From: Pseudocercospora fijiensis CIRAD86
Lineage: Eukaryota; Ascomycota; Dothideomycetes; Mycosphaerellales; Mycosphaerellaceae
Assembly: GCF_000340215.1 (NCBI RefSeq)
Contig: NW_006921542.1
Location: 1,280 to 65,279, forward strand
Length of the DNA: 64,000 bases
Direction: 5' to 3'
The notes beneath the pieces are model-generated. The model worked only from the letters and a program-made list of their open reading frames with translations, did not search any database and was not told the DNA's origin. Below, piece by piece: positions 1,184-63,290 of the stretch (positions are counted from its first letter, which is position 1; the number at the start of each line of letters is the position of its first letter). Both the position numbers and the translations under genes were made by a program.

Positions 1184-2412
1184 AACATTTGACTAAGCTT
1201 TATCTGCCCTACTTCCTTTCCTATAATGTTAAGGTATCTTAGTCTCCCTAGTTGCTAGTAACTCTCTTGTGCTAGTAAGGCCCTAAATATAAACCTATTA
1301 TCTTACCTAGACCTCTTTTATAGCACTTAGCTAGGTTGCTTCTATACCTAGCTGCCTTAGCTTATTGTATATCTTTTTAGTGTATTAATTCTAGCTTCCT
1401 TTGCCTTCCTAGCTGCCTGTATTCTTACCGGGCATTCCTTCGCCTAAGAGGGGTATCTTTTAGTATAGTATACATATCTTGCTTCTCCCTTGTATACTTT
1501 GTATTCCTTAACCTAGTAATCCCCTATATAATAGGAGCAAGTATTAGTTGTCTTTATGCACTTAGCTACTAAGTGTCTATAGTGTTAACATTTAAAGCAC
1601 TGTATTATCCTATAGTTGCTTCTATATATCTCTGTTTCTAATCTTTCAAAGTTCTAGAACAACCCCTAGTCTAGCACTATATTAGCTTGCTCTATACTCC
1701 CTACCTAGATAATTAGGGAAGACTACTTCTTAGTCTCTTCGATTTTCCTTTTAATCTATGCTACTTTTGTAATCTTTAGGCCTAGGTATATAGCTTGGTT
1801 TTGTCTCTATAGGCTCTTAACATCCCGTTCTTCCTTAAAGCTTCTTATTATACTATAGGCTATAATTATAAACTGCTATTAGGAGACCTTTGCTATTTTC
1901 CCTATCTTAGTTGTCTATTCTTTTTGTATTTCTAGCTTCTTTTTGTCCTACTCTTATACTATAAACAGCTTGATTACCCCTTTACCTTCGTTCCTAGCCC
2001 TAATTACCTCTTTAACTACAATTCTTTCTATAATCTCTTTCCCTATAAGTCCTTGGATTTCCTTTTGCTCCTATAGGTCCGTAATGTAGACTCTAACTAC
2101 TGTCCTCGGGGGTTTTGGCGCCTCCTAACTAGCTACTGCTACCTAGATGCGGTAGTTTAGGCTTATCTCCTATTGTTTCTTCGTAATCTTTACTGCGACT
2201 ATATTAGCTACCTTTGTAATTACGTAGCTTGCCTAGTTGTAGATTGCTTTCAGTCCTCTAAGGAGTTCTAAGATTATTATCCTATATGCCCTCTTAGGGG
2301 TTCTTCTATCTTCCGCCTTTAGCACCTCCTCTGCCCTAGTATATAGTGCTTTCTATTCGTCCTCCCTTCCTTCTTAACTGTCTTCCCTTCGTCTCTAATT
2401 GTTCGCTGCCAT
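1184..2412 (-). pseudogene. LINE ORF1, gag-like RNA-binding protein with CCHC knuckles (RIP-dead)
   Basis: The reading frame starts at the ATG whose complement is at 2410-2412 and is broken by many TAG/TAA codons at former Gln/Trp positions. Around 1505-1600 the minus strand encodes the CX2CX4HX4C and CX2CX3HX4C zinc knuckles seen clearly in copy 2. In Tad-type elements ORF1 coats the element RNA. The end is estimated by alignment with the other copy; no start other than the shared ATG is supported. Confidence 0.75.
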
Positions 2413-2660
2413 TTTTCCTAGTCTATATATACTTAGTTTCTTTATATACTTATATCGTTTTTTTTAATAAAATCGATAAAATCTTATATTATATATTATT
2501 AATTAGTTTGTTTAATTTATTATTTATTTACTTAGCAATAAACTATTAGTATAATGCTATTATTTTTTTACCTTATAAAACGATATATAACGTTTATTAC
2601 AAAGTGTTATAAAAATAATAAAATTTTTTTTATAAACTTTAATATATATATAACCTATCT

Positions 2661-3110
2661 TTAATGTAGATATAATCTATCTTTAATATAGAAATAATAT
2701 TACTATAAAGACTTGATTATAAAAGCGATACCTAATTATAATCTAGAAAAGGCTATAATAAATGCAAGAGGAAAAAAGGCTAAAAATATAAATATAAATC
2801 CTAAAGTAATTATATTATACGTGAAACCGCTAAGTATATTAAGTAATATGTAACCTGAAAGTATGTTTGCTACTAATCTTAGACCTAGTAATACATTTAT
2901 TGCAAGATATAATATAAATTTAATTAATACTAGTAATAGTAATAAAACTAATAGACAGCCTCGTACTACGAATAAAGATAAAAATTTCAAACTATGTTTA
3001 CTAAATGCTATTACAATTGCACCTAATACTACTATAAAGCTTAGATAAAAGGTTAATATAAGATAACTAGTACTAGCTAAACTATAAGTAAAAATTTCTT
3101 CCGTATTATA
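2661..3110 (-). pseudogene. atp6: atp6 fragment, ATP synthase subunit a, C-terminal ~150 residues
   Basis: Reading the minus strand from about 3110 gives the subunit-a core: a segment matching the ASTSHFILT region, then GLRL-ANILSG-LLNILSGFTYNI, PLAFIIAFS and a terminal YIKD block, with the stop at 2661-2663. The open part (2736-2990) is a run of hydrophobic helices, as expected of the membrane proton channel of complex V. RIP-type changes include Pro to Leu, His to Tyr and Gly to Arg. The N-terminal third is missing, so it cannot be functional; in the nucleus it is simply a relic. Confidence 0.88.
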
Positions 3111-4874: not shown

Positions 4875-5399
4875 TTACTTTAGGTTATTAAGGTGTAAAT
4901 CTATTAAAGTATTTTCTAATATACTAAGTAAAGGAACTATAATTAAGAAGTGTGAAAAATATAGAACAGTACTTATTTAACCGAATTCTATATATAGGGG
5001 TTCGATATGTTTAGCTCCTAGTTATATTAAAACTAGAAAATTTGCTACGAAAACAAAAAATGCTATTTTACTTAAAGGCCTGAATTGTAATCCCCTACTT
5101 CTACCTAAATCTATAAATAGCATAATTATTATTATTAAGATTGTAGAAAACATTGTAATAATACCTAATAATTTGTTAGGTATAGATCTTAATATAGTGT
5201 AGAAAGGTAGAAGATATTACTTAGGCATAATAGCTAGGGGTATTTATATAGGGTTAGCTATTATATAGTTTTTACTATTACCTAAAACATTAGGCATAGA
5301 AATACGAATATAGATAATACTACTATAAATAAAAAGATAGTTATTAAATCCTTAAAGATAAAGTATAGAGTAAAAGGAAGTCTATTATAGTTTCCTAAT
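4875..5399 (-). pseudogene. cob: cob fragment, cytochrome b, C-terminal ~175 residues
   Basis: The minus strand reads from the FIFKDL block through the region equivalent to [21 protein letters not shown] (heavily altered), then [27 protein letters not shown] and ISTVLYFSHF, ending at the TAA whose complement is 4875-4877. This is the last part of cytochrome b, a complex III subunit. The 5' end is cut at 5399, exactly where hAT1 sequence begins. RIP changes put stops at several Trp/Gln codons. Confidence 0.87.
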
Positions 5400-5402
5400 A
5401 CT

Positions 5403-5689
5403 CGAGCGCCCTAGAACCGATACCTAGAATATCGTATAGAATAAGCGATAGTAAAAGCGGCCTCCTTAGCGCCTACTCCGTTTTATCTAAGACGTTAAGA
5501 CCCGGTTTGATTCGACTTTCTATATAGTTACGAGGGGAGATACTTTACGTACCGCTCTCGAGATCTATTAGAGTTCCGAAGGTATTAAGTAGCTCGGGCT
5601 TACTGCCGCCGAATAGCGCTAAGTAGAGTATCTCCTCGATATTAGTAAGCATTACGCGAAGGTTACTACTACGATTAGAAGAATCCGAG
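5403..5689 (+). pseudogene. hAT1 transposase, central part (before the Gypsy A insertion)
   Basis: The frame reads LIERP-type sequence, then QDVKTRFDSTFYI (the DVxTRWNST hAT signature with W to F), then a helical stretch ending EYLLDISKHYAKVT. This is the RNase-H-like catalytic/insertion region of hAT transposases. The frame resumes after Gypsy A at 12592 with no loss: the 5-bp target duplication CCGAG is the only extra sequence. Stops are TAG/TAA at Gln/Trp positions. The first 33 bases duplicate 63247-63279 of the other hAT1 copy. Confidence 0.82.
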
Positions 5690-6035
5690 TATTACGGATC
5701 TAATTAGTTAGAGTCCTTATATAATCTTAGAGCGACGCTAAGACTAGCGGACTAAGCTATCGCTCTATCTTACTAGGAGCGATAGGAGCGGTCGAGAGCG
5801 ATAGCGTCGCTTACGTCGCTTACGACTATAGACAAGATATCTCCTTTGTATTTAGAAACGCCGGAATACCCTTATAGCTCGAGGCGTTTAACTTATATTA
5901 CCTACTTACTAATTAGAATTACCTTTATACTAATTATTCTGTCTCTACCTCCCGCTTATATTAGCCTCTCTAAAGAAGCCTCGGCTTATACGTAATAAGA
6001 AGTTACCTAACGATCTATCGCGAGTAACCGTAACA
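5690..6035 (+). repeat. Gypsy A left LTR
   Basis: Starts TA (TG before RIP) and ends TAACA. It has the same length as the right LTR and differs from it only by C/T and G/A changes. The LTR of the related copy at 55698 still begins TGTTACGG. Confidence 0.93.
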
Positions 6036-6129
6036 CTTTAAACGCCCTTAGGATAAGTGCCTTATTACAAGTCAGAAAGGGAACTCCCGCCCCTAGCGAG
6101 ATAGGTAGTCCTCGACGTACTACCTCTAG

Positions 6130-7010
6130 TATTAGTAGTATACTAGGAACCTATACCGGAAACGATTCCCTTAAGATCGGAAAGCTAGACTTTTATTATA
6201 GCGACCGAGACAAGTTCGATACCTAGGTTAGCTAGATAGATATGTATTTTATATTTAACTAGGTTTAAGACAACTTAAAGCTAGTCTTCGTAATAACGTT
6301 TATACGAGGTAGGGCTTAGTATTAGGTTAAACTATTTCTTAGGACCTATCTAGATAGCAACGGGACCGACTACTTAAATAGAATCTTCGCAAGCTACGAA
6401 TATCTTAAGCGTATAATAAAGAAGGTCTTCGGATCTTCTAACGAGGTTGCTACCGTAGTTAGGGTTATCTAACACTTAACTTAGAAGGGGTTATATACCG
6501 ATTACGCCGCTAAATTCTAGGAATACGCCTAACTTACGGATTAGGACGACGAAGCTCTTATAATAATATATCGGCGAGGTCTTAAGGACAACGTTAAGGA
6601 CGAGCTTATACGCGATAGTAGAAAAATAGATAATATAGGAACATTAGTTAAGGTTACAATCGATCTCGACGATAGGCTCTACGAACGAGCTTTAGAACGG
6701 CGCTACGATTCTAAGACTTCTAGAAAAGCTAGTTATACTCCTAGATACGATAATAGATAAAACTATAGTACCTACGATAAACTAAAGAGGAACAACTACT
6801 ATAGCGCGCAACTAATAGAGCTAGACGCTACCTAGAAGGGTCGAGTATTTAAAGGAAGAAAGGGCAAGAGTTCGCCTAAGAAAGTAGGAAGATTAACTTA
6901 CTATATATATAGTAAGGAAGGCTATATAGTATAGAACTACCGCGGTAAGAATATAGTACAATGCGAACAGTTTAATATAATATAACGAAAGGACTCGGGC
7001 AGAGGAGGCT
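6130..7010 (+). pseudogene. Gypsy A gag (capsid-nucleocapsid), RIP-dead
   Basis: After the LTR the frame gives a gag capsid region (FYYSDRDKFDT followed by IDMYFIFN-type sequence). Near 6896-6950 is a CCHC knuckle in which every ligand Cys and His has become Tyr: the frame reads YYIYSKEGYIV then a stop and NYRGK, where CxxC-x4-H-x4-C is expected. In Gypsy B the last Cys of the same knuckle survives. Gag would form the particle and bind element RNA. The exact start cannot be fixed. Confidence 0.8.
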
Positions 7011-10000
7011 ACTAAATAATAGTAGGGCTATACTCTACTAATAGTACGCCGAGGACCTACGTAGAGGTCGTAAAGAAAGAGCTACGACAAATCTATATAA
7101 TAGTACGACGATAAGAACCCGTATATAGAACCCTTTACTAGAGATTCTATTACGACGACTAATACTAAATTTATTATTCTACTAAAATAGAAGTAGGATT
7201 CTTCCCTTAGAATAGGCGACTCGTACGAGAAGATACGAAATCCTAGTTAGAAGAAGAAACGATTAATAAATCTTGCTTAGATACTAACGATAAAGAAAAC
7301 CGAGATCCGGAAGCTTTATTCCCTCCCGGGGAGGAGTTAGGAGCTATCCTAGAAGTACCGGAGTCCCCTTAGTAAAAGGAGGAATAGTAAGAAGATTTAG
7401 AAGGAAGTCTAGATACTAAGGAAGAAACTACGATTAAAGAAAGTAAAGACGAATTCGGGATTAACGACGATACGATCCTTATATTTATAATAGATGCACT
7501 TATAGTAGCGCGAACAATCGCCTTATATCTAGTACGTAAATACGAGGAAATGTTTCTAAGGGTTAACGGATAACGGAAGGTCGATCCTATCTAATTTAAT
7601 TATTTCTAGATAAGCTTACGGGCAAAATTCTAGAATTACCCCTAGATACTTATAGACTATACGTACTATAACTTTATTATAGAGCGAGTACCGATAGGAA
7701 GTATAATTACGCCCTACGGATACGTCCTACCCGACGAGAGGACGATTATTACTTAAGATATACGTTAGACGGTCTAGCGACTAAATTAGCAATACCGAAA
7801 GGCTATAGTAGCGTAAGGACGAGATATATATAACGATACCCTCGAAGAAAAATTATATACCGAAGAAGCACGAACGGTAGGACTACGGATCCGTAGCTAG
7901 TTAGAATAACGTTAGGCTACTAACTAGTCGGGGAACGGACTAACTCTCTAGATTAGAGCGTTCTAAGAGAGTTCCTTAATACCGAAAGCGCTTAAGTATT
8001 AATAGTAGTCTTCCGTATAAAAGTTATCGTTAGCGGGTACCCGACGAGTATATTAATAGATTCCGGAGCGAGCGGGAACTTTGCCTCCGAATTATTCGTT
8101 AAGAGCCGAAGGATCGTAACCCGAAGTAGAAGAGAAGGAGCGTATAAACTTATAGTAGTAGATAGGTTACCGCTACCTAGTATAGAACGAGAGACGATAC
8201 CGTTACTACTAGCTATCTAATAGCACTACGAGGAAATTGTCTTAGATATTACTAATATAGCTAGTTATAATATTGTACTAGGTATACCTTAGTTAAGAAA
8301 GTATAACCTAGTCGTAAATTAGAGAAGAGGAGTACTTACATTTAAGGAATACGACTATATAATCGGCATTTAACCTATATAGCGGCAGCGTTCGTAGACA
8401 GATAAGATTAATAAACGTAGGGCGACTCGTAAGACGTTTACGTCGATAGGAATTACGGAGAACCGTATTTAACCCGGATCGACACTACCGTTAGGTTAGG
8501 AGGGTTATAATAATAATTACGGGAAGGATAGAAGTTATACGCTATCGAAGAATAAAACTAGAATCTCGGACCTAGACATTCCTAAAGAGTATAGTAAGTA
8601 GAAGCGACTCTTTAAAGAGAAGAGAGGCAAAGCAGCCTTACCTAAACACTAACTATAGGATTATAAGATATACTTATAGCCTAGGAAAGAGCCTCTATAG
8701 GGACCCTTATACGCAATGTCTAAGAAAGAGCTTAAAACCCTAGATAAGTAGCTAAAAGAGAAATTAGAAAAAGGCTAGATACGGAAGTCGATATCCTCGG
8801 TAGCCTTACTAGTAATATTCGTTCCGAAAGCCGGATTAGACAAAGGACGGCTAGTAGTCGATTTTAGACGACTTAACGATATTACGATTAAGAATCGGTA
8901 CCTATTACCGAATATCGAAGAAATACAAGACCGATTAACTAGATTAGACTAGTATACGAAGATTAACCTATACGATACGTTTTACGCAATACGTATAGTA
9001 GCTAGATACGAATAGATAATAGCATTCCGAACGAGATATAGGCTTTACGAATTCTTAGTTATACCTATAGGACTTACGAATACCCTAGCGTTATATTAAG
9101 ACCTTATAAACGAAGTCCTCCGAGACCTCCTAGATATATATATTATCGTATATATAGACGATATCGTAGTCTATACTAAGGGAGCTCTCGCGGACTATAT
9201 ACGAATAGTATAGGACGTCTTTAAACGATTTACTTAAGTAGGATTTAAGACTATACCTAAGAAATGCGAATTCTATAAGAAGGAAGTTAAGTTCCTAGGA
9301 TTTATTATTAGTACTATAGGAGTTAGAATCGATCCGGAAAAAACTAAGTTAATATAGGAATAGCTAACGCTAATATACGTTAAGGACGTACAATTATTCC
9401 TAGGATTAGCTAACTATAATAGGAAATTTATCGAGGGCTATTCTAAGATAGCGGCACCCCTTACGGAGCTTATAAAGAAAGATAAGAAATAGGACTAGAG
9501 TACGAAGGAAGATAAAGCGTTTAGGCAACTAAAGGAGCAATACGCTTCTATACTAACGCTACGATTATTCGATAGGAATAAGGCGGTCTAGATAGAGACA
9601 GACGCTTTAGATAGAGCTATAGGAGCATGTCTTATATAAGAGTATAACGGGAAACGATACCCGGTAGCCTATTACTCGAGAAAGATATTACCCGCGGAAT
9701 AGAACTACGATATCTATAATAAGGAGCTACTTATAATAGTTATATTACTATAATACTAGCGAGTATACGCGGAGGGAGTACTAAGTCTTACGATTCTTTC
9801 TAATTATAAGAATCTAACTTACTTTACTACGACTAAAGTACTAACCCGAAGGTAGGCCCGCTAGTCGGAGCTACTAGGATAGTATAAGTTCGAAATCCGC
9901 TATACCCTAGGACGCGAGAACGGACGAGCCGACGTACTAAGCCGCCGTAGCGACTATATAGAGGGTTACGAACTAGTGCAGTAGCAGATTTTAAAAGCAA

Positions 10001-11370
10001 ACTAAGACGGAAGCCTTAGTGCTAATATAAAAGAGTTTAACTATACTATACGAGTTCTTTATAATATAGAAGAATAGTTTCTAATCGAATATAGGAAATA
10101 CTAAGTACCTAAGGAACGAGTTAAGGAGTATATACGACAACACTACGACGGACTAGAAAATAGATACCCTAGAGTTTCGAAAATAATAGAACTAGTTAAG
10201 CGAAGCTTCGGATTCCTATATATACGATAACGAGTTCTAGAATATATTAAGAAATGTCGACAATATTAGCGTAATAAGGCTAATAGATACGCTAAGTATA
10301 GATATGTCTAATTTAGGACGCTACTAGATAAACTATAGGACGAAGTTATAATAGACTTTATTACGAAACTACCGAAGTCTAAGGATCCGGTTATAGGATA
10401 TAGCTACGATATAATACTTATTATAGTTAATAGGCTTACGAAATATATACACTTTATTCCTACTAACGAAGCAAGTACGGTAGAGCAACTCGGATACCTC
10501 GTACTAGATAGACTTATACGATACTACGGATTCCTAAGGACCTATATTACGGATAGAGACAAGCTCTTTACGTTAAACTACTAGAAGACGCTTATAGCGA
10601 TACTTAGAATTAAATACAAGCTATTAACGGTATACTACCTATAGACAGACGGCTAAACGGAAATTAAGAATTAGGCCTTAGAGGTATACTTACGATACTA
10701 CGTTAATTACGTACAAAACAATTAGGTATCGCTATTGCCTATAGTACAACTTGCACTAAACAATTAACAATCTAAGACTACGAAAGAAACACTATTCTTC
10801 GCTAATTTTAGGAAATATCCGTAGCTATTCGGGGAATAGTATTTATAGTATCTATACGCGGATAAAGCGATAGTCGCTTTAGAAGACTTAAAGCAGGTAT
10901 ATAAACAATTGTAAAGGGCAATTGCCGAGTCTTAAGAAAAGATTACGGGACCGTATAATGCTAAACGAAAAATAGTACCTTAGCTAAAAAAGGGGGATAA
11001 GGTCTACCTCCTAATAAAGAATCTAAAAACCCGGAGATCGACTAAGAAACTAGACTACGTTAAAGTCGGGCTATTTTTAGCTAATAAGCCTAAAGGACTA
11101 GTTAATTACCGACTTAAACTACCGGACGACGCAAAAATCTACCTAGTATTCTATATCTCTATACTAGAACCTATAGACGCCGAAACACCGTATTAAGAAA
11201 CATTTCACTTTTAACCTAAGGAAGAAAATAAGTTTAAAGTCGAGAAAATCCTAGACTAGCAAGGTTAGAAATACCTTATTAAATAGAAAGGATACCTATA
11301 TTTAGAAAACACTTAGGAACTAAAAGAAAATCTATAGAACTATTAGTAGATAATCAAAAAATATTAAAAC
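7011..11370 (+). pseudogene. Gypsy A pol: protease, RT, RNase H, integrase, chromodomain (RIP-dead)
   Basis: One broken frame carries, in order: an acidic linker (7200-7560); a retropepsin with the active-site motif DSGASG (about 8056-8076); reverse transcriptase with LVVDFRRLND and the catalytic YIDD at about 9149-9163; RNase H with ETDALD near 9597 and a DVLSRR end near 9930; integrase from about 10080; and a chromodomain at 11233-11370 (VEKILD, YLIK.KGY, IIKKY). The chromodomain would tether integration to modified chromatin. About one codon in twenty is a TAG/TAA at a Gln/Trp position. The catalytic motifs of protease and RT are intact by sequence. Confidence 0.9.
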
Positions 11371-11639
11371 TAGACAAAAAGAAATAACTAGTATAGGAAT
11401 TAAACCTACGACCTCTTAGACCCTATCGATTATAGCGCCTTAGAGTTCTTAACGACCTAGGGTAGTATAGCTCGAGGAGCGGGAACTCTAATAGCGTACC
11501 TAGCAACTATATCTTTTATAGCTAAGAATTATACTACTAGACTAACTAGCTAGAAGATAAAATAGATAGGAAACACTAAAAATATATACCTTTAGGATAC
11601 TAGATTCTCGGCACTCCTACTAGGAATTTTAGAGATAGG

Positions 11640-12190
11640 CTAGGATATCCTATCTAGACGACTCTAGTTATAAGGAGATATCTATAATCGGCTATCTAGG
11701 GGAAACGGCTCGTTAGTAGGTAACGAGAATAATATCGGCTCTATAGGCGAAGAGCCTAGCTCTCTTTCGAGCTCCTCCGCCTATTAAATAGAGGCTTCCT
11801 CTACCTTAAGAGCTTATACCTCCCGATCTTCCTTTATACGTAGCGACTTACGTAAGCGGCGGACCTTTACGCGGTACTCGAAGAGTCTCTATATAAGAAG
11901 GTCCTCCTCCTCTTCGGCCGCCTTAAGATCTTTAGCTATCTTTAGGCGCGCCTTCTAGATTTTTTTATACTCTATACGAGTAACTTATATATTACAAGAC
12001 TAGCCGTATAGGGCGCACTCGGAGTAGCGACCGGAACGAAGATCGACCTTATAGGATTTACCGGCCTATTCGTAATAAAAGTAGCGGATCGGTATTTCGA
12101 GATAGTCGGCGAGGATATTATTTGCGATATTTTCCTTACGCTAGCGAGAAGACAAGTCCTTCGATAACTTTAGTATAATAAAGAAGTTAG
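11640..12190 (-). pseudogene. Antisense ORF in Gypsy A 3' region: Cys-motif plus coiled-coil protein
   Basis: Opposite to pol, between the chromodomain and the right LTR, the minus strand reads about 150 codons with stops only at Gln-type positions. It begins with a Cys-containing block (IPIRYFYYE, SECALYG, SCNI; several Tyr look like former Cys). A strongly charged helix follows (KAAEEEEDLLI, RLFEYRVKVRRLRKSLR), and the tail is acidic and Pro-rich. Antisense ORFs of this general plan occur near the 3' end of some fungal LTR elements, as far as I recall; the function is unknown. Confidence 0.55.
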
Positions 12191-12240
12191 AATTAGAAAG
12201 TTCCGGAATAAGGGACTATTCCGCTTAAGGAGGGGGATAG

Positions 12241-12586
12241 TATTACGGATCTAATTAGTTAGAGTCCTTATACAATCTTAGAGCGACGCTAAGACTAGCG
12301 GGCTAAGCTATCGCTCTATCTTACTAGGAGCGATAGGAGCGGTCGAGAGCGATAGCGTCGCTTACGTCGCTTACGACTATAGACAAGATATCTCCTTTGT
12401 ATTTAGAAACGCCGGAATACCCTTATAGCTCGAGGCGTTTAACTTATATTACCTACTTACTAATTAGAATTACCTTTATACTAATTATTCTATCTCTGCC
12501 TCCCGCTTATATTAGCCTCTCTAAAGAAGCCTCGGCTTGTATATAATAAGAAGTTACCTAACGATTTGTCGCGAGTAACCGTAATA
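12241..12586 (+). repeat. Gypsy A right LTR
   Basis: 346 bp, matching 5690-6035 except for transitions. Preceded by a polypurine tract and followed by the target duplication CCGAG at 12587-12591. Confidence 0.93.
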
Positions 12587-12591
12587 CCGAG

Positions 12592-13571
12592 GACCGACGA
12601 TCTACCTTATCTTTACGTACTATAACTAGCTCTTTAACGAGCTCGACAAAACCGTAGCTAAGCTAGCTAAGAAGAGCGTCCTCTAGAAAGCAGCTATAAC
12701 GAAAGCTATAGATATCTCCTATACTAAGTTATATAAATATTATAGTACTACCTTTTAGTCGTTCGGGGATATCTATAGCGTTACGTACTTACTTAACCCT
12801 ATAGAAAAGGATATATACTAGTAGAAGCTAGAATAGAAAGAGGACGAGGAATAGCCTAAGTATTACTAGACTATTCTAGAAAAGATATTCTACGAGCGTC
12901 GGAAAGAAACTAGTCTAAATATAGCTCCTATAAAGAATAGAAGGTTTAGAAGGCTCCGATATTATACCTATCTCGTAGGTAGGAAGTAGAGGTAGAAGAG
13001 AAAGCAACTACTAAATTAAATAAAAAAGAGTTCGATCTCTATCGGCGCGCGAGTAAGTACTAAACCCGTAGGCTCGGAAAGAGGGCTAATAATCTCTAGA
13101 TCTTACTAGTCTTCTAGACGAATTTAGAGACGATATTCTCGCTATATAGTAGTAGTTAGAGCCTAAGTTTCTAACGATAGCGTCGGTCGCTCGGGACGTC
13201 CTCGTTATACCGAGCGTAGGTATAGGCTATAAGAGGTCTTTTAGTATCGCTCGTTACTAGGGCCGCTTTTATCGAATATACTCGCCTACTACCTTCGAAT
13301 CTATTATAGTATTCCGATACTATCTCCTCTACTAGAGTCGCTAAGGTAGAATACTAAAGATTATACTAAAGGACTTAATCGAGGAACTAGAAAACCTTAA
13401 GATCGAAGAAACCTAGGAGCGTAAAGAGAATACGAAATTTAGTCTAAATAAAACCCTAATTAGCGATAACGAAGAGGAGGAGGGCGGAGGTAGAAGGCGA
13501 TACCGGATCGAGAAGTAGAAACGTATATAGGCTTAGAGTAGCTTTAAGAAGACAAAGCGTTTATATAGAAG
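12592..13571 (+). pseudogene. hAT1 transposase, C-terminal part with hAT dimerisation domain
   Basis: The frame continues from 5689: DDLPYLYVLYN, LFNELDKTVAKLAKKSVL, then YLLNPIEKDIY (the LNP block of hAT enzymes), a KYY.TILEKIFYE stretch, and at about 13108-13330 the C-terminal dimerisation domain (LDEFRDDILAI, VARDVLVIPSVG, RSFSIAR). The last matches the (S)ERxFSxA signature of hAT family dimerisation. Former Trp/Gln codons are stops. The reading frame appears to end in, or splice at, GT 13572 (predicted intron to 13628), after which no transposase similarity is seen. Confidence 0.85.
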
Positions 13572-13628
13572 GTAATATAGCCGGCGTCTATAGCCGGTAT
13601 ATATCTTTAATATATTTCGAATTCCTAG
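13572..13628 (+). other. Predicted intron with paired GCCGGC repeat
   Basis: Begins GTAATA and ends TTCCTAG. It contains TAGCCGGCGTCTATAGCCGG, two self-complementary half-sites that could pair into a hairpin. It lies at the end of the hAT1 transposase frame. 13629-13740 downstream shows no coding sequence. Confidence 0.4.
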
Positions 13629-13739
13629 GACCTAGATAGACTAGTTACTATAGCAACCTATTCCGCTTACTTACGGACTATTTCTAATTCTCTATTCGCT
13701 CTTCCTCTCCTTCTTCCTATTCCCTATATTCTTAAAGAC

Positions 13740-14526
13740 AAATATACCTTAAGGATTCGGCTCTTCGGGCCTTTCTAAGCTAGCCGCCTCCCTTTCCTTA
13801 AGCTACTATTCTTTAAACGAATCTAACGATAACCTACTAAGGTAGTTTAATAGAAGACTATTTAATCTAGAAGGTAAGAAGTATAAATATCTCCTTACGA
13901 TTATAGGCTTATTAATTTTCTAGGTCCTACCGATATACCTTCGTCGCCTAAACGCGTAGAGGAATATCTTTAGAGCCTAAAGGGTAAGGGTAAAGCAAGC
14001 TAGGTATAGGGAGACTATAGCGAAAACGAGATATCGGAAGAGTAAGACTCTCTATAGTATATACGAAGGAAAGGGGTTCCTCGGAAAATAGTACCGAAAA
14101 ATAAGAAGGCTTTAGATAGATAGGAGAAGGCTAAAAAGAGTAGATAGACGAAAGCTATTACGAAGAAAAGTTATTATTCTATTAAAAAAAGGGAATAAGG
14201 TAGGACTCGACGATAAAGAAGCGGCGCTTTAAACTAGATACTATTACCCTTCGCTAGATCCGGCTTTTCTAAAATAAAAGAGGGATCGAGCTTTTAATCC
14301 CTAAGACTCTTTTCTAGCGACTCGTCCGAGAAATTATATTAGATTTTCGGTCTAGTATACGATTTACGGCTAAGGCGATTAATGCTCTTTAGGAAGCTAT
14401 AGAGGCATTTCTCGTAACCGAGCTTAAGCTTTTAAACCTACTTACTATCTATACGAAGCTAGTTACTCTTTAAAATAAAGATATATAGCTTCTAGCTAAA
14501 ATTCGGCGTCGGTTTATAGCGGATTA
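13740..14526 (+). pseudogene. H3-like histone gene 1 (CENP-A-like), cargo of hAT1, RIP-dead
   Basis: The histone fold lies at about 14215-14526 and aligns without gaps to histone H3 from the αN helix to α3: RRFK.DTITLR, IELLIPK, LVREIILDFR, IRFTAKAINAL, EAIEAFLV, IYTKLVTL and NKDIQLLAKIRRR. Upstream is a long Lys/Arg/Ser-rich tail in two exons (about 13740-13873 and 13924-14205). They are separated by an intron at 13874-13923 (GTAAGA to TTTTCTAG with TATTAAT), whose removal keeps the frame. The tail and fold are in different frames near 14205, so there is also an indel or an unseen small intron. Stops are all TAG/TAA at Gln-type positions. A long divergent tail recalls CENP-A rather than canonical H3, but the RIRFTAK-type loop and cargo context are unlike any host histone I know. 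Confidence 0.7.
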
Positions 14527-14623
14527 GTTAGAAATTGTATTTAGTTATTAGATTAACCTAGGAGGAGGCCTATTTTCGTATCCTATTGCCGGCTATAGGT
14601 ACCGGCTATATTTCTAATTTTAT

Positions 14624-14935
14624 CTCCGCGCCGTCCCTAAATCTAAGGTACGAAGTAGAAACCTAGCGCTCTATATTTACCCGGCTATTATAGAGACGAG
14701 CTATATTCTAATTAGTTTCTTCGTATATCGCGACCTAGTAGGTAGTAAGCGAAAGGGCGATAGAACGTTTATAATACGTCTCTATTTAGACCTAAAGTAT
14801 AAAGGTCCTAAGGAGCCCTAGTATCCTAACTATAAAGAGATTCCTTAGTATTAGCTCTTTAATCCTCTATACTACGAGGTAGATAGTAAGCCTATAAGAG
14901 AGAAACTTTAACGAGAGATTCTCTATAATATATAG
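14624..14935 (+). pseudogene. Unknown ORF fragment downstream of H3-like gene 1
   Basis: I do not recognise it. About 100 codons read with only five stops, all TAG or TAA and thus of RIP type. The product contains hydrophobic beta-like stretches (TSYILISFFVYRDLVG, RTFIIRLYLDLKY), then a Pro/Tyr-rich part and PIREKL. A GCCGGC pair at 14586-14611 separates it from the histone fold and could lie in an intron, so it may be a further exon of the same gene or a separate one. Confidence 0.35.
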
Positions 14936-15632
14936 CGCTATTATATAGCGATAGATACGTACTAAGTCCGGCAACTCGAAGAAGGATTAAGATAGCGTAT
15001 TAGCGACCGAGGAGGAGATCGATAGTATACTAGTAAAGTCGAGGTCTTATAAGCGAAGTACGAGATAATATAGGCTCCTAGTTACTTAGAGTAACGTACT
15101 ATATAAATAACTAGGCGTACTACTCTTATTTACTTACGACCTATATCCTAGGATACTCTTTTTATACTTTTTATACTCTTTTCTAATACCTTACCTATAA
15201 TCGCTCCGTAATAACCGAGTAAATATAAGCTATAGGATTTCCGCTCGGTACCTTAGCCTTCGAGATACGGCGGAGTTAATTATCTATAATACGTAGCGCT
15301 ATTATATAGCGATAGATACGTACTAAGTCTAGCAACTCGAAGAAGAATTAAGATAGCAACCGAGAAGGAGATTAATAGTATATTAGTAGAGTCGAGGTCT
15401 TATAAGCGAAGTACGAGATAATATAGGCTCTTAGTTATATAAAGTAACGTACTATATAAATAACTAGGCGTACTACTCTTATCTACTTACGACCTATATC
15501 CTAGGATACTCTTCTCGTACTTTTTATACTCTTTTCTAATACCTTACTTATAAGCGCTCCGCGATAACCGAGTAAATATAAGCTATAGGGTTTCCGCTTA
15601 GTACCTTAGCCTCCGAGATAGGGCGGAGTTAA
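14923..15632 (+). repeat. 361-bp tandem direct duplication
   Basis: Unit 1 (14923-15283) and unit 2 (15284-15632) share the start TATAATAYRTAGCGCTATTA and stay aligned to GGCGGAGTTAA, with a few small deletions in unit 2 and otherwise transitions. The first bases overlap the end of the preceding ORF fragment, so part of the repeat may be coding. Nothing else is seen here. Confidence 0.85.
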
Positions 15633-15642
15633 ATTTAGAGCA

Positions 15643-16178
15643 ATAGCCGGCACTCGTAGCCGGTATATAAAGACGGTAGTAGGCCTTTTCCTACTAAATA
15701 ACTAGCTTGTTTAGTATAGCCTACCTAATATTTTTTACATTTCCTAGTTATAGGCCTAGGTTACTTATAAGATTACTATAGCTAGTAAGGGAATTACTAA
15801 AGAATATCTATACTATCGTAGGATACTATTATTACGCCGGCTATTTATTAAGAGGAGGCTTTCGCCTATTACTATACTAGCTATATATACCGGCTATATT
15901 TTAAAGTTTACCGTACCTGCCTTTTTTAGCCGTACCTACCTTCTCTCCTTACTCTAACGTTACTATAATATAGGCTTACGCGACGCTTACTCTATTACCT
16001 AGCGATACCGCGATACTACCTCTCTTACTCTATTTAACCTTCGTATTAATACCTATACCTCTATACTCTATATCTACTACCTCCGTAATACCCTTACTCT
16101 ATACGCGCCTTAGTATACCTTCGTAACGTACTTTTTTCTTTAATTTAACGACTTTTATAATACCGAGTCTACTTAACT
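15643..16178 (+). other. Intergenic stretch with GCCGGC repeats, upstream of H3-like gene 2
   Basis: Holds GCCGGC pairs at 15643-15668 and single sites near 15835 and 15886, then pyrimidine-rich RIP-mutated sequence. I see no coding sequence; it is the likely 5' region of H3-like gene 2. Confidence 0.4.
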
Positions 16179-16951
16179 AAGTTACGACGCCTCGTAAGAA
16201 GGGACCTACTACCTCTACGGGCCGTAATAAGACCGGAAATAGTAGAAGGAGTATAGTATATTAACGTAAGAAGGCTACTACTACTACCGCTAGCTCTAGT
16301 ACTAGAAAGGGCGTCGTAAGTAAGGCTCTATATAAGACGATATCGGGTAAGGCTCTACGTAAGACGACGACTAGCGCTTTAACTACTAGTAGTAATAATT
16401 GTACGAAGCGTCGATAGCGCCTAGGAACTAAGTCCTATTTATAGCCGGTAGCGTAGCCGGTATTCTTACTATCTTTTTACTAATCCTTCTTTAGCCGTAG
16501 CCCTCCGTAAGATTTAGAAGTATTAGAAGGGTTCTAATCTCCTACTCTATAAAGCTCCTTTTCGACGACTTATTTACGAAGTTGCCTAGTATTATAGACT
16601 AGACCTTCGCTTCTAAGCCTCCGCGCTAGACGCCCGTTAAGAGGCTATAGAAGCCTACCTAGTGCGTATCTTCGAATATATATTTCTCTTCTACCTCTTT
16701 TCGAACTATACTAATACTATTTTAGCGGTTACCCTTATAGCTATCTACGCGAAGCGTATTACGATTACAGATAAGGATTTTAAAGCACTCGATCAAATTC
16801 TAAAAGGCTAGAATGTCTATATTCGAGATAGTGCTAGGTAAGATAGATATTCTAGTAGGAAGGATATTCGTAGTATTATCTATAAGCTTTTCTATATACG
16901 AAATAAGCCGCTATTATACGGCGCTATATACCGCGCTCTAAATACTCTCTA
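16179..16951 (+). pseudogene. H3-like histone gene 2, cargo of hAT1, RIP-dead, with two introns
   Basis: Exon 1 (16179-16431) encodes a basic Thr/Ser/Lys-rich tail typical of H3 N-tails (TPRKKG, TASSSTRKG, SGKALRKTTT) ending KRR.RLGT, the start of the αN helix. Exon 2 (16495 to about 16675) gives ALRKI.KY.KGSNLLLYKAPF, RRLIYEVA, DLRF.ASAL and EAIEAYLVRIFE. Exon 3 (from about 16725) gives LIAIYAKRITITDKDFKAL. All align to H3 in order. The introns end TTCTTTAG and TATTTTAG, each with a TACTAAT-like branch site. Unlike H3, a further 45-50 residues follow the fold, to TAA at about 16951. RIP stops are few. It is clearly diverged from gene 1, so it is not a recent duplicate. Confidence 0.68.
16432..16494 (+). 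other. Predicted intron 1 of H3-like gene 2, with GCCGG repeat pair
   Basis: GT near 16432; the hairpin-forming pair TAGCCGGTAGCGTAGCCGGT at 16442-16461; branch-like TTACTAAT and acceptor TTCTTTAG ending at 16494. It falls exactly between the RLGT and VALR parts of the conserved histone αN region, which is why it must be spliced out. The exact donor base is uncertain because of mutation. Confidence 0.55.
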
Positions 16952-17150
16952 AGTATATATATATATATAGTATAGTATGCTTTATTAGCCGTACGGAATA
17001 GAAGTCTTCGAAAATCGCGTTAGTACTAAGGAGTAAAAAGGCCGGCTACGCTACCGGCTACGCTACCGGCTACGCTACTAGGTTTTTTAAAGAACTAAAA
17101 GAAGATAGATATTGCGGTTAATTTATATTAGTTTAGATTTTTATAAAAAG
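16952..17150. other. Spacer with triple GCCGGCTAC repeat
   Basis: At 17041-17078 the unit CCGGCTACGCTA occurs three times in tandem. Apart from an AT repeat near 16960 nothing else is seen. Confidence 0.5.
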
Positions 17151-17154
17151 AAAA

Positions 17155-17690
17155 CAGGGAAAAATAAGGAAGGTTAAAGAGCTAAATACTTATAGTTATA
17201 GGCATTATCCCTCTTTTCTAGACTATATTAAATACCTGCCTTCGTAACTCTACCTAATACTCCCTCTAAATATCCTTATACTCTACCTACTAGAAATTCG
17301 ACTGGGTACCTAGACCTGTAGCTACCTCTATATCTTTTACTATCTTCTATAGGTTAAAGGACTCCCCTATAGTAGCCTCTACCTCCTTATATAATACGAA
17401 GTTACTATCTACCCTACCCTTTATATCTTCTAAATAATTAAGAGTTCTAAGGAACGAACTAGTATTCGGCCTTAGTATAGCGAGTAACTAGCAGAACGTT
17501 ATATAGAGCTGCTTTATAGCTTTTTTATATACTATACCGATACCGAGGGAGGAGCTATCCTAGTACTTAATATTAGAGAATAGTTTAGTAGGAAAGTATT
17601 AGAACTTCTTAAGAAGGGCTTCTAGGGAAATCGATAAGTTCTACCTAGATCTAGATAATAATATTCTACCGAGCAGTTAGGGAATTAAAT
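17155..17690 (-). pseudogene. Unknown minus-strand ORF near the right end of hAT1
   Basis: I do not recognise it. On the minus strand about 170 codons read with stops only at Gln/Trp-type positions. The predicted product is helical and charged (LEALLKKF, YKKAIKQLYITFC, LRPNTSSFLRTLNYLEDIKGRVDS, VYKEVEAT-like and a terminal DNAYNYKYLAL). It faces H3-like gene 2 tail to tail. It could be a transposon cargo gene or a remnant of something hAT1 landed in. Confidence 0.35.
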
Positions 17691-18029
17691 AGCGAGTGAA
17701 AGGATGAAATTTATACCTAATAAGTGCAGTTTCTAAACTAAACTATAATAGCTTATATATATATATATGCTTTTAATTAGTTAGTGCTCTTAGCTAATTG
17801 TCTATAGATTTAGGGTTATATAAGTACCTTCCTATAACTAAAAAATGCCGGCTACGCTACCGGCTATACTCTCGTATCTTATAAAGGGCTTACTTCGAGT
17901 TACGTAGATATTCTTATACTTCTTAGAAACCGATAAATTCTATAGTTCGAACTAGCTACTCCTATAGTTGCTTAGTAAACCAACCTAAACTAAACTAGAT
18001 CTTTAGCTTAGCAAACTAAACTAAACTAA
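17691..18029. other. Subterminal region of hAT1
   Basis: Contains a GCCGGCTACGCTACCGGCTA pair at 17848-17869 and, near the end, repeated AAACTAAACTAA blocks. These mirror the TTTGGTTT/TTTAGTTT blocks next to the left TIR at 59169, as expected of subterminal transposase-binding repeats. No gene seen. Confidence 0.5.
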
Positions 18030-18050
18030 CCCGAACTACTACGGGGTCTA
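18030..18050 (-). repeat. hAT1 right terminal inverted repeat
   Basis: On the minus strand it reads TAGACCCCGTAGTAGTTCGGG. It matches the left TIR at 59169-59188 for 17 bases straight, then again after one mismatch. Flank outside is CTTTTAAT, which differs from the left flank TAGACGAT of the other copy, so the two TIRs belong to two insertions. Confidence 0.8.
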
Positions 18051-59168: not shown

Positions 59169-59188
59169 TAGACCCCGTAGTAGTTTGG
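59169..59188 (+). repeat. hAT1 left terminal inverted repeat
   Basis: TAGACCCCGTAGTAGTTTGG directly after Gypsy B RT sequence; inverse match at 18030-18050. The eight bases outside are TAGACGAT. Confidence 0.8.
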
Positions 59189-59304
59189 TTTCCGAACCAC
59201 TAAACGTATATAGTTTGGTTTCTTAGCGGCGAACTAGCTCCCTAGTTCCGGTTTGGTTTTTTCGAACTATATAGATTCCTAGTTTAAACTAGAGACTATA
59301 TTAG

Positions 59305-59630
59305 TTTTACTATAAGGACACTCTTATTCGACTGCCGGCTACGATTGCCGGCTATAATAGTAACTCTATTACATTTACTACGCTCTTTTGCTGTTGCTAG
59401 GGCGTAGTTGCCGTTGCTAGGGCGTAGTTGCCGTTACTAGGGCGTAGTTTTGCTATAAGGACACTCTTATTCGACTGCCGGCTACGATTGCCGGCTATAA
59501 TAGTTACTAGGTTGTATTTACTACGCTTTATTACCGTTGCTAGGGCGTAGTTGCCGTTGCTAGGGCGTAGTTGCCGTTACTAGGGCGTAGTTACTATTAC
59601 TAGGGCGTAGTTGCCGTAGTTGCGAAAGCT
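59305..59630 (+). repeat. Subterminal duplication with 20-bp tandem units
   Basis: A block of about 146 bp occurs twice (59305-59450 and 59451-59596): ATAAGGACACTCTTATTCG, a GCCGGCTACGATTGCCGGCTA pair, then tandem copies of the 20-mer GCTAGGGCGTAGTTGCCGTT (three in the first block, four or more in the second). Possibly multiple transposase-binding sites or a promoter. 59189-59304 holds the GTTTGGTTT repeats. Confidence 0.8.
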
Positions 59631-60084
59631 TACCTATATAACGTTACGTAGGCGGCAACAATTAGGGCTTCGCGATATTCTTATACTTTCAACTTCTTCC
59701 TCTATACCTATACCGATAACAACTACTATACGCTACGCCCCCGCCCCTTTCCCTTATAATAGTAAGAGAGAAGCGCGCCGCGCGCTAAACAGAAGATAGA
59801 ACTAAAGACCGCGAGTTTGTTTTACCTAAGCGTCTAACTAAAAAGCGTAAGACTAAAGAGGAGTACTCTACGAAGAAGAATTCCGTACGAGACCGCGAGA
59901 GAAAGGACAAGATAGATAAGGATAAAAGAGCTAAGGATAAAAGAAGAAAGGCGCGGAATAAGGCATTCTATCGATAGCTAGCGCCTATAGAAAAAAGTAA
60001 AGGTTAGAATAAGAAGACAACCTAAGAGAAGGCTAAGAAGAGGAAAGAATTGCGGCTAGTTTTCGAGCGTAAAGTTCTAGCAGC

Positions 60085-60191
60085 GTAAGTCAATCTAGCT
60101 AGCGGCCGTAGCTAGTAGCTATAGCCGGCAGCCGTAGCCGGTAGCTATAGCCGGTATATTTTTCTTTAACACGTTAACTAATAGTATTTAG
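60085..60191 (+). other. Predicted intron with triple GCCGG repeat
   Basis: Donor GTAAGT, branch-like TTAACTAAT, acceptor TATTTAG. It contains TAGCCGGCAGCCGTAGCCGG and a third unit at 60123-60155. Splicing joins ...VLAA to PIAATS in frame. Confidence 0.6.
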
Positions 60192-60690
60192 ACCTATAGC
60201 CGCTACCTCTATCGATACGACCGATAGTAACGGAGATGTTTAGATAGCCGAGAACAATAATACTAGAGTTTAGGATGCCGCGATAGAGCTTAATACTGCG
60301 AATAAAGAAACTAAAAAAAGCGAGGAGATACTATACGTCGATCTAGTAACAGGTATAGTCTTAGGGCCTAACGCTATAAACGATAAGCGCTAGGAGTAGA
60401 TCGAGTATAGTTAAAGAGACGAGATACTAGTAAAGGGCTAAGGTATAAGTCCTATTAATCTAGAAAATCATAGTTAAAGCTACTACGAAAAGCTAGCAAG
60501 GATTGGAATCGAGACTAGTCGTCTTTATATCCTCGATATAGAGTAGAAGTTTCTTTATTAGTATTAGAGCGAAGCCTTTACGTCTATAAAGGCAAAGTAG
60601 CTTACGATTAATACGATCGGGGCTAGGTATCTAGGGACGGTAGAAGTGTTACTATAGGAGGAAGGGGTATAGGTAATTATTCTATACTCG

Positions 60691-60738
60691 GTATATATAG
60701 CCGGCGTTCGTAGCCGGCAGATACTAACAGTTAAATAG
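60691..60738 (+). other. Predicted intron with GCCGGC repeat pair
   Basis: Donor GTATAT, the pair TAGCCGGCGTTCGTAGCCGGC, a perfect TACTAAC branch site at 60723-60729 and acceptor AAATAG. Splicing joins ...LYS to KAFLEG in frame. Confidence 0.6.
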
Positions 60739-62067
60739 AAAGCGTTTCTCGAAGGCAGAGTGCTACTGCTATATAAAATCTTTACTAAGGCAGAGAGGGC
60801 TTGTATCCGGAATCTAAGCTACTAGTAGGATAGGTTAGCGTTAGAATTCTCTAAATCTCTATATAAGCCTCCGAAGGATTACCTATTTTAGCGATACGGC
60901 TTTATCTCGACTACTCCGTAAGTACCCGAAGAAGCTCGAGCGCTCTTTAAGGTCTTTACTAAGAAGCGGAAGGAGTTCGAGGATTAGGATTGGTTAATAG
61001 AGCTATTAGTTAGTCTTAGGTTTCGTAGTTAGACTCGGCCTAAGCATTTGCTTATCGAGTGTCTTATACCGAAAGAGGATAGATTAAGACTAAAAACGAG
61101 CTTAGATTCGTTAGGTATAGTAGCTCGGTTCCGTTAGTAGGAGAGAGCCGCCGTATAGAAGGCAAAATTCAGGTAGTTAGGGTAGCTAGGAAAGAAATTC
61201 TAGTAGTTAGGCTAGCTAGGGTAGCTAGGAAAAAAAATCTAGTAGTTAGGTAGCTAGGAAACAAAAAAAAAGGTAGCTAGCTATTTACTACCTAGCTATT
61301 CCTAACGATACGATGCTATAAAAGAAGGGGGGTTTCTCTATAGCTACTAGTATACATCTACTACTCCTAAGTCCTTACCTTACTATACGAAACCTTAAAA
61401 CATACCGACCGACATTGTATATATACTAGGCGCTATACTAGGAAGGGTAATAACGAGACGATAGTCGAAATAGTCTAGTATACGAGCGAGATTACGACAA
61501 CGTCGAGAGGAGGTCGTATACTTACCTTCGAGCCTATCGAGTCCTAGACTACGATTAAGGCTAGATTTATCCTCTCCGAATCCTAGTAGTAGGAATTCAT
61601 TATAGGGTACTACTACCTAGTCCTTACCTTTACGGAGTCTAAGTAGAAGGTTATTCGGAGATATAAGAACATCGAGTATTAACCCGGAAATCTTCGAAAA
61701 GGCTAGCTAGGCGTATCTTTAGAAACCCGAGTATATAGAGTAGTTTAATCAATAGGTCTATAAGATATAGTTCCCTTTATACTTACGTTCGAAGGAGTAT
61801 AAACTCCGGAAGTACTCGATGCGATAGGGGAGTAAGGAGCGAACGGACACATTCTAGAAGTTCTTTATAGAGGGGGCATTGCACCGTTATACGACTTCTC
61901 GACTTAAAGGTTAACTAGTAATTGTCTATAACTTCTACGGTTTAATCTTAAAACACCCGAAACTAGGGGATAGGAACTTATCGCCTACGAACTATCTCTA
62001 TTCTAAACGGTATCGGGAATCTTAAGGAGAGAGGAGAGTTAATATAGATATAGCGTTCTAGAAAGAG

Positions 62068-62167
62068 GTATGTCTTCTAAAATACCGGCTATAGCTGCCG
62101 GCTACAGCTGCCGGCTATAGATTCCGGCTACCTAAATTAACCGTAGAGATCTAGCTAATTATTATAG
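62068..62167 (+). other. Predicted intron with four CCGGCTA units
   Basis: Donor GTATGT; four copies of the CCGGCTA unit at 62084-62131; acceptor TTATTATAG. Located between two transposase exons. Confidence 0.55.
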
Positions 62168-63101
62168 GCTACGCTTAAGGAAGCTCTAGGATTAAAGGCT
62201 ACCGATTTCTCCCCCGAAGACTTTAAGCAACTAGTAAACGAAATGCTAGCTATAAACGGTCTTCCGGAAGACTTCTACGAAAGGGAGTCTATATAGAAGA
62301 CATACCTATATCTTATAAACTACCCTCCCCTATTTCTCGGCGCGACAACCTAGCGTATTATATTCGAAAAGAACAAAGAGGCTGCGTTAGACGACATTCG
62401 GGAGATCCTCCGTAATACTCGCCGAGTAGCTATTGCTATCGATAGCTAGTTAAGCCGGACTATAAGAGCCTCCTTCCTCTCGATTATACTATACTTTATC
62501 AATTCGGATTAGAAACTCTAGGAACTTATAATCGGATTCCCTAAAATTCTAGGTTCCTATACTAGTAAGGATATAGCGAAGCTTATCTATATAGCAATAG
62601 ATAGGGTTAGCGTAATAACGAAACTGATCTCGATTACTACGGACAACGCTAGTAATAATCGAATATTGTATAAGGCGTTGTATATATAATTCACTCGTAT
62701 ATATCTTTAAAATTACTAATTGTATCGATAGGGTCGAGTACGTAGAGGAGATTATAAGGTCTATAATCTAGCTTAATCTTCCGAATATTAAGCTCGCTAC
62801 GATCCCGGATACGTACGATAATACGTACGATAATAACGATAAAGAGGAGCCTATTAATAGCCCTAGCCCTATTAAATCGGAGCCGACGTCGTTGCTAGTT
62901 GCATCCCTATAGAAGTTTCCCTACCTCGCTTATATAGTTTAAATCGCGATCCGAGCCCTCTTTAAGACGCTTAAAATTGCACTATTAAACGACGACTAAT
63001 AGAAGATCCTAGATAAGGATAAAGCAAAGTCGAAAGTCGAGAAACTTATTACAGTAATAAGACGGGATAAGGCAGAGAGCCTCGCTCTCGTTTTATATAA
63101 G

Positions 63102-63170
63102 GTATAACTTTTGTCCGTAGCCGGCACCTATAGCCGGCAACCTAGTATAGTTCTAACTCTTTTTCTCTAG
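63102..63170 (+). other. Predicted intron with GCCGGC repeat pair
   Basis: Donor GTATAA; pair TAGCCGGCACCTATAGCCGGC at 63118-63138; branch-like TTCTAAC; acceptor TTCTCTAG. It separates ALVLYK from LRRLA, which are adjacent in hAT transposases. Confidence 0.62.
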
Positions 63171-63290
63171 CTTCGTCGTCTAGCAATATATACGAACTCG
63201 AGCTTATAGAGATATAACCGATTCGAGGCTATTTAAAAGAACCTAATCGAGCGCCCTAAAACCGATGCCTAGAATATCGCTATCTCCTAC

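What the first reader, a model, noticed from the sequence alone, without database searches (positions are those of the whole stretch)
13740..16951. Two divergent H3/CENP-A-like histone genes inside a hAT transposon
Seen: two separate reading frames align in order to the whole H3 fold (gene 1: LLIPK, LVREI, EAFLV, KDIQL; gene 2: LLLYKAPF, RRLIYEVA, EAYLVRIFE, IYAKRITI). Both have basic N-tails and introns. They lie between the hAT1 transposase C-terminus and the hAT1 right TIR and carry RIP stops, so they were repeated sequences. Known: H3 and CENP-A are single or low-copy host genes. Inference: a transposon carrying its own nucleosome variants, perhaps to mark its chromatin, to reach centromeric DNA or to resist silencing. 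I know of no described hAT with histone cargo.
Basis: partly seen in the sequence, partly recalled or inferred. Interest (0 to 1): 0.92.

Follow-up and report, generated by a model that had tools for sequence, protein, structure and literature searches.

The report
Transposon carrying two dead histone H3s
A large cut-and-paste transposon, in what is almost certainly the banana black Sigatoka fungus, carries two genes resembling the DNA-packaging protein histone H3, now broken by the fungus's mutation defence; the element was already published, but the second histone gene turns out to have introns and both genes stayed readable while the element diversified.

Summary
The window holds the right part of a RIP-killed hAT element (12587-18050) with two H3-like genes between the transposase end and the right TIR (Pfam Histone E=2.6e-17 and 7.9e-14 on this copy). 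Complete copies elsewhere in the genome carry both genes between TIRs with 8-bp target duplications. It is already published: Manning 2013 (Pyrenophora, intact H3L) and Dhillon 2019 (Pseudocercospora fijiensis: 9.5-kb hAT, 784 H3-like copies, all RIPped). The genome matches that assembly (73.9 Mb, largest contig 11.88 Mb, host H3 on contig 6). So "no described hAT with histone cargo" is wrong. "CENP-A-like" is not supported, and gene 1 shows no intron. Three points differ from the published account: gene 2 has two spliceosomal introns, one of them the published "16-residue insertion", so it is no simple retrocopy; three element subfamilies carry both genes, and exon lengths differ between subfamilies only by multiples of three; and RIP-proof codon counts in the most diverged comparison put the histone cores under constraint like the transposase, though most comparisons are not significant. 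Most likely: element-owned H3 variants that once worked, function unproven, now pseudogenes.

The parts
12587..18050 (+). Right part of hAT copy 1 (subfamily A), transposase end to right TIR; its continuation to the left is 5399-5702, separated by 5703-12586
   Evidence: blastn against seven long copies, 86-93% identity; right end by TIR
5399..5702 (+). Piece of the same hAT element left of the inserted sequence
   Evidence: matches L011 4188-4491; 12587 onwards matches L011 4474 onwards
13173..13443 (+). End of the hAT transposase, dimerisation-like region (approximate, placed by offset from L011 5060-5330)
   Evidence: fragment of L011 gives sub-threshold Dimer_Tnp_hAT, E=0.0083, 16.3 bits against a cut-off of 21.4
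14064..14524 (+). Gene 1: H3-like pseudogene, tail and histone core in one frame, no intron seen; broken by stops and a 1-nt loss
   Evidence: Pfam Histone on 14198-14524 E=2.6e-17; limits by alignment
16193..16427 (+). Gene 2 exon 1 (basic tail; start not resolved)
   Evidence: alignment and length classes; no Pfam hit alone
16428..16494 (+). Gene 2 intron 1
   Evidence: donor GTAAGT in 14 of 15 copies, the window being the exception; acceptor TTAG in 15 of 15
16495..16677 (+). Gene 2 exon 2 (histone core, first part)
   Evidence: Pfam Histone on 16497-16808 E=7.9e-14; limits
16678..16725 (+). Gene 2 intron 2, 48 nt, the published 16-residue insertion
   Evidence: 48 nt, TACTAAT and TTTTAG in 15 of 15 copies, donor unaltered in 2 of 15; leaving it out of an L011 read-through raises Pfam Histone from 79.5 to 96.7 bits
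16726..16808 (+). Gene 2 exon 3 (histone core, end)
18034..18050 (-). Right TIR of copy 1
   Evidence: exact match
59169..63283 (+). Left part of a second hAT copy, beginning with the left TIR 59169-59185; histone part not present in the window or in the next 9.2 kb of the contig

Best explanation
This is the H3-carrying hAT element of Pseudocercospora fijiensis (Dhillon et al. 2019), here a dead and interrupted copy. The two H3-like genes were resident genes of the element: gene 2 a spliced gene with two introns, gene 1 without an intron in its readable block. They spread with the element by hAT transposition and stayed readable while it split into at least three subfamilies; RIP then broke the copies. 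Shown: residence between TIRs with target duplications, both genes in three subfamilies, introns by sequence signals, frame-keeping length changes, RIP. Inferred: that the proteins were made and useful to the element, most likely as H3 variants placed in nucleosomes. A guess: that the use was to weaken silencing. The readable tails lack the ARTKQTARKS stretch around H3K9, but first exons are unresolved and an ARTRYRKS stretch lies just upstream of gene 1 in another frame.
For: Both genes in the same order in 15 of 15 copies of three subfamilies. Perfect 8-bp duplications in 4 of the 6 subfamily A copies with both ends held, in L046 (subfamily B) and L051 (subfamily C). Gene 2 introns; +17 bits on leaving intron 2 out. 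Gene 1 block 462, 450 or 435 nt by subfamily, gene 2 exon 1 in five lengths all 1 mod 3, intron 1 lengths in all residue classes. Transversions, which RIP cannot make, A against B: both histone cores 16/362 at codon positions 1+2 and 20/180 at position 3, p=0.005; transposase 41/956 and 34/480, p=0.032. A second fungus has a hAT with an intact, transcribed H3L (PMC3538342).
Against: 16 of the 18 rows of the codon test are not significant, among them A-C for both cores (p=0.80) and C-B (p=0.075); the core/tail split was made after the whole-gene test had failed (gene 1 A-B p=0.16, gene 2 p=0.31). Gene 2 exons changed more than its introns (42/472 against 1/112, A-B). No intact copy was seen in this genome among the scored hits and no close intact relative among the listed protein hits. 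No expression evidence is available here.
Confidence: 0.55

Rival explanations
1. Passive transduplication, as published: an H3 transcript or retrocopy was taken up by chance, and was multiplied as a passenger without a role.
For: The published reading. All copies seen here with stops are RIPped. Whole-gene codon tests are not significant; A-C shows no constraint.
Against: Gene 2 has two introns, so it is not a simple retrocopy. Both genes persist in three subfamilies with frame-keeping length changes. Histone cores A-B show the codon pattern of the transposase.
Confidence: 0.35
2. The 48-nt segment of gene 2 is a coding insertion, not an intron, and gene 2 is a mutated retrocopy as the 2019 authors read it.
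For: 48 is divisible by three, the segment is open in frame and has the same length in 15 of 15 copies, and it changed less than the flanking exons.
Against: Donor unaltered in 2 of 15 copies, TACTAAT and TTTTAG in 15 of 15; leaving it out gives one continuous H3 match. A second interval with GTAAGT and TTAG ends restores the GTVALR junction, which this rival does not explain.
Confidence: 0.08
3. The genes are CENP-A variants with which the element reached or made centromeric chromatin.
For: Neither gene groups with canonical H3 rows; a metagenome protein labelled CENP-A by its source (P0093) falls into the same weakly supported group as gene 1 (80/85); AU tests do not reject either gene with CENP-A (gene 1 p=0.116, gene 2 p=0.226).
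Against: Loop 1 has the H3 length in both genes, four residues shorter than in the host CENP-A; neither gene lies with the four other CENP-A rows.
Confidence: 0.05

Closest known systems
H3-carrying hAT family of Pseudocercospora fijiensis (Dhillon et al. 2019, PMC6710886; abstract, background, results, discussion and methods read)
   Same: Element length 9.5-9.9 kb, 8-bp target duplications, two H3-like copies per full-length element, a 16-residue insertion in the second, RIP, host H3 on scaffold 6 with two introns
   Different: That paper reports one family, a captured intron-less transcript and inactive passengers; here three subfamilies, two introns in gene 2, and signs of former constraint. 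The TIR letters are not in its held text, so they could not be compared
H3L-carrying hAT of Pyrenophora tritici-repentis (Manning et al. 2013, PMC3538342; passages and part 1 of one section read)
   Same: hAT with transposase and an H3-like gene that is neither H3 nor CenH3, with insertions in the tail
   Different: 5.6 kb, mostly intact and transcribed copies; the 2019 authors found no nucleotide similarity between the elements. H3L was not among the listed protein hits here, so no direct comparison was made
H3-like proteins named by their sources as from Tricladium, Bisporella, Hyaloscypha and Stipitochalara (P0045, P0174, P0180, P0217, P0232); Leotiomycetes by recall
   Same: Share with gene 1 the segment TE(F/L)EL before NL in the histone core; Tricladium rows are the nearest rows to gene 1 by path
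   Different: Grouping with gene 1 not supported (72/35); whether they lie in transposons is unknown

Membership tests
hAT superfamily | 8-bp target site duplication at terminal inverted repeats | tested here: met
   4 of 6 subfamily A copies with both ends held, plus L046 and L051; L009 and L014 not perfect
hAT superfamily | hAT transposase with C-terminal dimerisation domain | tested here: inconclusive
   Dimer_Tnp_hAT E=0.0083, below the curated cut-off; no transposase family in whole-frame scans. The 2019 paper reports DUF659 but not the dimerisation domain
Histone H3 | Core histone profile over the curated cut-off | tested here: met
   Window copy 63.7 and 52.4 bits against 26.4; 80.9-96.7 bits for five read-throughs of other copies, one of them with intron 2 left in (79.5 bits)
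Histone H3 | Groups with H3 proteins in a tree | tested here: inconclusive
   Both genes on long branches outside the H3 rows; AU p=0.045 for gene 1 and 0.21 for gene 2 with ascomycete H3
CENP-A (CenH3) | Longer loop 1 | tested here: not met
   Gene 1 and gene 2 have the H3 loop length; the host CENP-A has four residues more (alignment)
CENP-A (CenH3) | Groups with CENP-A in a tree | tested here: inconclusive
   Not grouped with the four main CENP-A rows, but AU tests do not reject it
Published H3-carrying hAT of P. fijiensis | Size, duplications, two H3-like genes, 16-residue segment in the second, RIP, host H3 on scaffold 6 | tested here: met
Captured retrocopy | No introns in the captured genes | tested here: not met
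   Gene 1 meets it over its readable block; gene 2 has two introns, the first one codon away from the second host H3 intron
Functional cargo | Protein made and used by the element | not testable with these tools
   Only indirect signs:

The most novel reading that the evidence does not exclude
The two H3 variants were working genes of the hAT element, one of them a spliced gene rather than a retrocopy, kept under protein-level selection comparable to that on the transposase. If the Pyrenophora H3L and the Leotiomycete H3-like proteins share this origin, hAT elements of filamentous ascomycetes would own a lineage of H3 variants used to manage their chromatin, for example to escape K9-based silencing.
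Probability: 0.35. Interest if true: 0.75.

Novelty: already known. Interest (0 to 1): 0.42.

Why it matters
Histone genes inside a mobile element are unusual, and this case stands in print as an accidental capture. Introns in gene 2, three subfamilies that kept both genes in frame, and a codon signal in the histone fold make selected cargo a testable alternative: that a DNA transposon carried nucleosome parts of its own in a genome that silences repeats. It also corrects the inferred origin, a captured transcript, for one of the two genes.

Tried and rejected
CENP-A origin: set aside on loop-1 length and tree position; the AU tests do not reject it. Origin from the host H3 gene: not resolved; only gene 1 with ascomycete H3 is marginally rejected (p=0.045). 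Gene 1 and gene 2 as one clade: not rejected (p=0.355). Gene 1 with the Leotiomycete variants: in the best tree but unsupported (72/35). Intact relatives: three protein searches (A2: 1846 hits, 120 listed, none listed above 57% identity; P0045: 7875 hits, 120 listed; A3: 85 hits, all listed); the listed rows are H3 or H3-like proteins and none is named as Pyrenophora H3L. The whole-gene codon test failed and is reported. Two further reading blocks of the element (L011 about 1130-2100 and 2300-3020) and a middle transposase fragment gave no Pfam family; a DUF659-like fragment gave only TNP-like_RNaseH_N at E=0.17. I ran no structure prediction, since Pfam settles the fold. Paper searches; in their listings and in what I read I saw no report of introns, subfamilies or selection for these genes. 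The 2026 Pseudocercospora paper (PMC13041039, passages) repeats the 2019 result.

Full report
What was checked. The region is strongly RIPped: the (CA+TG)/(AC+GT) ratio is 0.07 for window bases 13741-17000 and 0.15-0.27 in seven other copies. With stops as X, the gene 1 core in the window (14198-14524) matches Pfam Histone at E=2.6e-17 and gene 2 (16497-16808) at E=7.9e-14; the tail pieces alone gave nothing. In a complete copy (L011) one frame carries both, E=7.8e-37 with two stretches. This is not chance.

The carrier. Seven long copies were fetched by pairing TIRs. Six have both ends in the fetched stretch, with lengths of 9565-9934 bp; four of the six have perfect 8-bp duplications, L009 and L014 do not. 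On contigs 1-3, whose TIRs appear complete in the capped listing, 34 of the 150 scored histone hits occur; 19 of these 34 have an exact TIR at the expected distance, against about 0.006 per hit by chance. A transposase C-terminal fragment gives a sub-threshold Dimer_Tnp_hAT match (E=0.0083). The element is a hAT by its ends and duplications, with weak domain support in my scans.

It is published. Dhillon et al. 2019 (PMC6710886; abstract, background, results, discussion and methods read) describe in Pseudocercospora fijiensis 784 H3-like copies in 471 elements, a full length of 9.5-9.9 kb, 8-bp duplications, two copies per full-length element, a 16-residue insertion in the second, RIP of all but the original H3, and the original on scaffold 6 with two introns. 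Here the host H3 is on C6 with two introns, C1 is 11.88 Mb, and the published assembly is about 74 Mb with a largest scaffold of 11.8 Mb (PMC4981457, passages). The species is an inference, but a strong one. Manning et al. 2013 (PMC3538342; passages and part 1 of one section) had already described a hAT with a mostly intact, transcribed H3L in Pyrenophora tritici-repentis.

Anatomy beyond the paper. Divergent hits led to two more subfamilies: B (L046, L048, L049, L053; L046 complete, 8.6 kb, duplication GAAGTAAA) and C (L050, L051; L051 complete, 9.1 kb, duplication GCCTTTCG). The 15 copies examined, nine of A including the window, two of C and four of B, all carry both genes in the same order; in L048 gene 2 is interrupted. 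Gene 1 has no intron in its readable block. Gene 2 intron 1 has donor GTAAGT in 14 of 15 and acceptor TTAG in 15 of 15; it splits the threonine codon of GTVALR, one codon from the second host H3 intron. Intron 2 is 48 nt with TACTAAT and TTTTAG in 15 of 15 and a donor unaltered in 2 of 15. Leaving intron 2 out of a read-through raises the Pfam match from 79.5 to 96.7 bits. These 48 nt correspond to the published 16-residue insertion. A simple retrocopy does not explain gene 2.

Was the cargo maintained? Lengths: the gene 1 block is 462, 450 or 435 nt by subfamily, with 1-nt losses in three single copies of A; 28 loci give 462 (25) or 435 (3, the same places as L046, L048 and L049). Gene 2 exon 1 has five lengths (202, 232, 235, 247, 262), all 1 mod 3; exon 2 is constant; exon 3 is constant but for a 7-nt insertion in L009; intron 1 lengths (67-116) fall in all residue classes. 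Substitutions: RIP makes only transitions, so I counted fixed transversions between subfamilies. Whole genes, A-B: gene 1 6/144, 5/141 and 10/142 at positions 1, 2 and 3 (p=0.16); gene 2 12/156, 13/158 and 17/158 (p=0.31). Cores of both genes: A-B 16/362 at positions 1+2 against 20/180 at position 3 (p=0.005); C-B 16/366 against 15/179 (p=0.075); A-C 11/360 against 6/177 (p=0.80). Tails show nothing; of 18 rows printed, two are under 0.05 (both cores A-B, gene 2 core A-B). Transposase segments as yardstick: A-B 41/956 against 34/480 (p=0.032); C-B 39/959 against 38/473 (p=0.003); A-C 11/993 against 8/491 (p=0.46). So the histone cores look like the transposase in A-B, weaker in C-B, and A-C has few changes in either. 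Against this stand the post hoc core/tail split, the number of tests, and gene 2 exons that changed more than its introns (42/472 against 1/112).

Kinship. In a 36-row tree gene 1 (2 rows) and gene 2 (5 rows) are each one clade (100/100) on branches of 0.74 and 0.76, outside the H3 rows and outside the group of four CENP-A rows. A fifth row, P0093, labelled CENP-A by its source, shares a weak group (80/85) with gene 1 and the Leotiomycete proteins; gene 1 plus the latter has 72/35. AU tests: gene 1 with ascomycete H3 p=0.045; gene 2 with ascomycete H3 0.21; both with ascomycete H3 0.12; gene 1 with CENP-A 0.12; gene 2 with CENP-A 0.23. Read-through letters carry RIP missense changes, which lengthen the branches. 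Loop 1 has the H3 length in both genes; the host CENP-A (L041, grouped with Botrytis and Exophiala CENP-A, 99/95) has four residues more. The origin stays open; CENP-A looks least likely. No listed protein hit of gene 1 exceeds 57% identity.

Mechanism. Best reading: H3 variants encoded by an autonomous hAT, made when the element was active and placed in nucleosomes; dead in this genome because RIP struck the copies. Maintenance in frame is shown for the copies examined; constraint is supported at moderate strength; benefit is inferred; the kind of benefit (weaker K9-based silencing, marking of chromatin, dosage of host H3) is a guess. The readable tails lack ARTKQTARKS, but an ARTRYRKS stretch lies just upstream of gene 1 in another frame, so the tail may be incomplete. 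Passive carriage remains a serious rival.

Noticed in passing
window 5703-12586: A RIPped retrotransposon (reverse-transcriptase- and integrase-like text by eye in the reading frames, no family scan) splits the first hAT copy; the hAT pieces on its two sides overlap by about 18 positions of L011.
   Followed up: no
window 5399 and 63283: The first hAT copy begins at about L011 4188 and the second one ends at about L011 4226, a 39-bp overlap, 58 kb apart in the same orientation; perhaps a rearrangement. The sequences outside the two breaks do not match each other.
   Followed up: partly
G000 C1:8853279-8853651, C2:581713-582085; L053 4395-4766: Short elements of about 372-373 bp with the same TIR, MITE-like derivatives; one is nested in a subfamily B copy.
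   Followed up: no
L011 about 1130-2100 and 2300-3020: Two further blocks of low stop density without a Pfam family, possibly other genes of the element.
   Followed up: partly
P0045, P0174, P0180, P0217, P0232: H3-like proteins from Tricladium, Bisporella, Hyaloscypha and Stipitochalara with a TE(F/L)EL segment like gene 1; one is truncated, one marked partial, one occurs on three contigs.
   Followed up: partly
L011 7985-8050, 8576-8655, 9439-9512: A GC-rich repeat of TAGCCGGTAGCG type in gene 2 intron 1 and again nearer the right end of the element.
   Followed up: no
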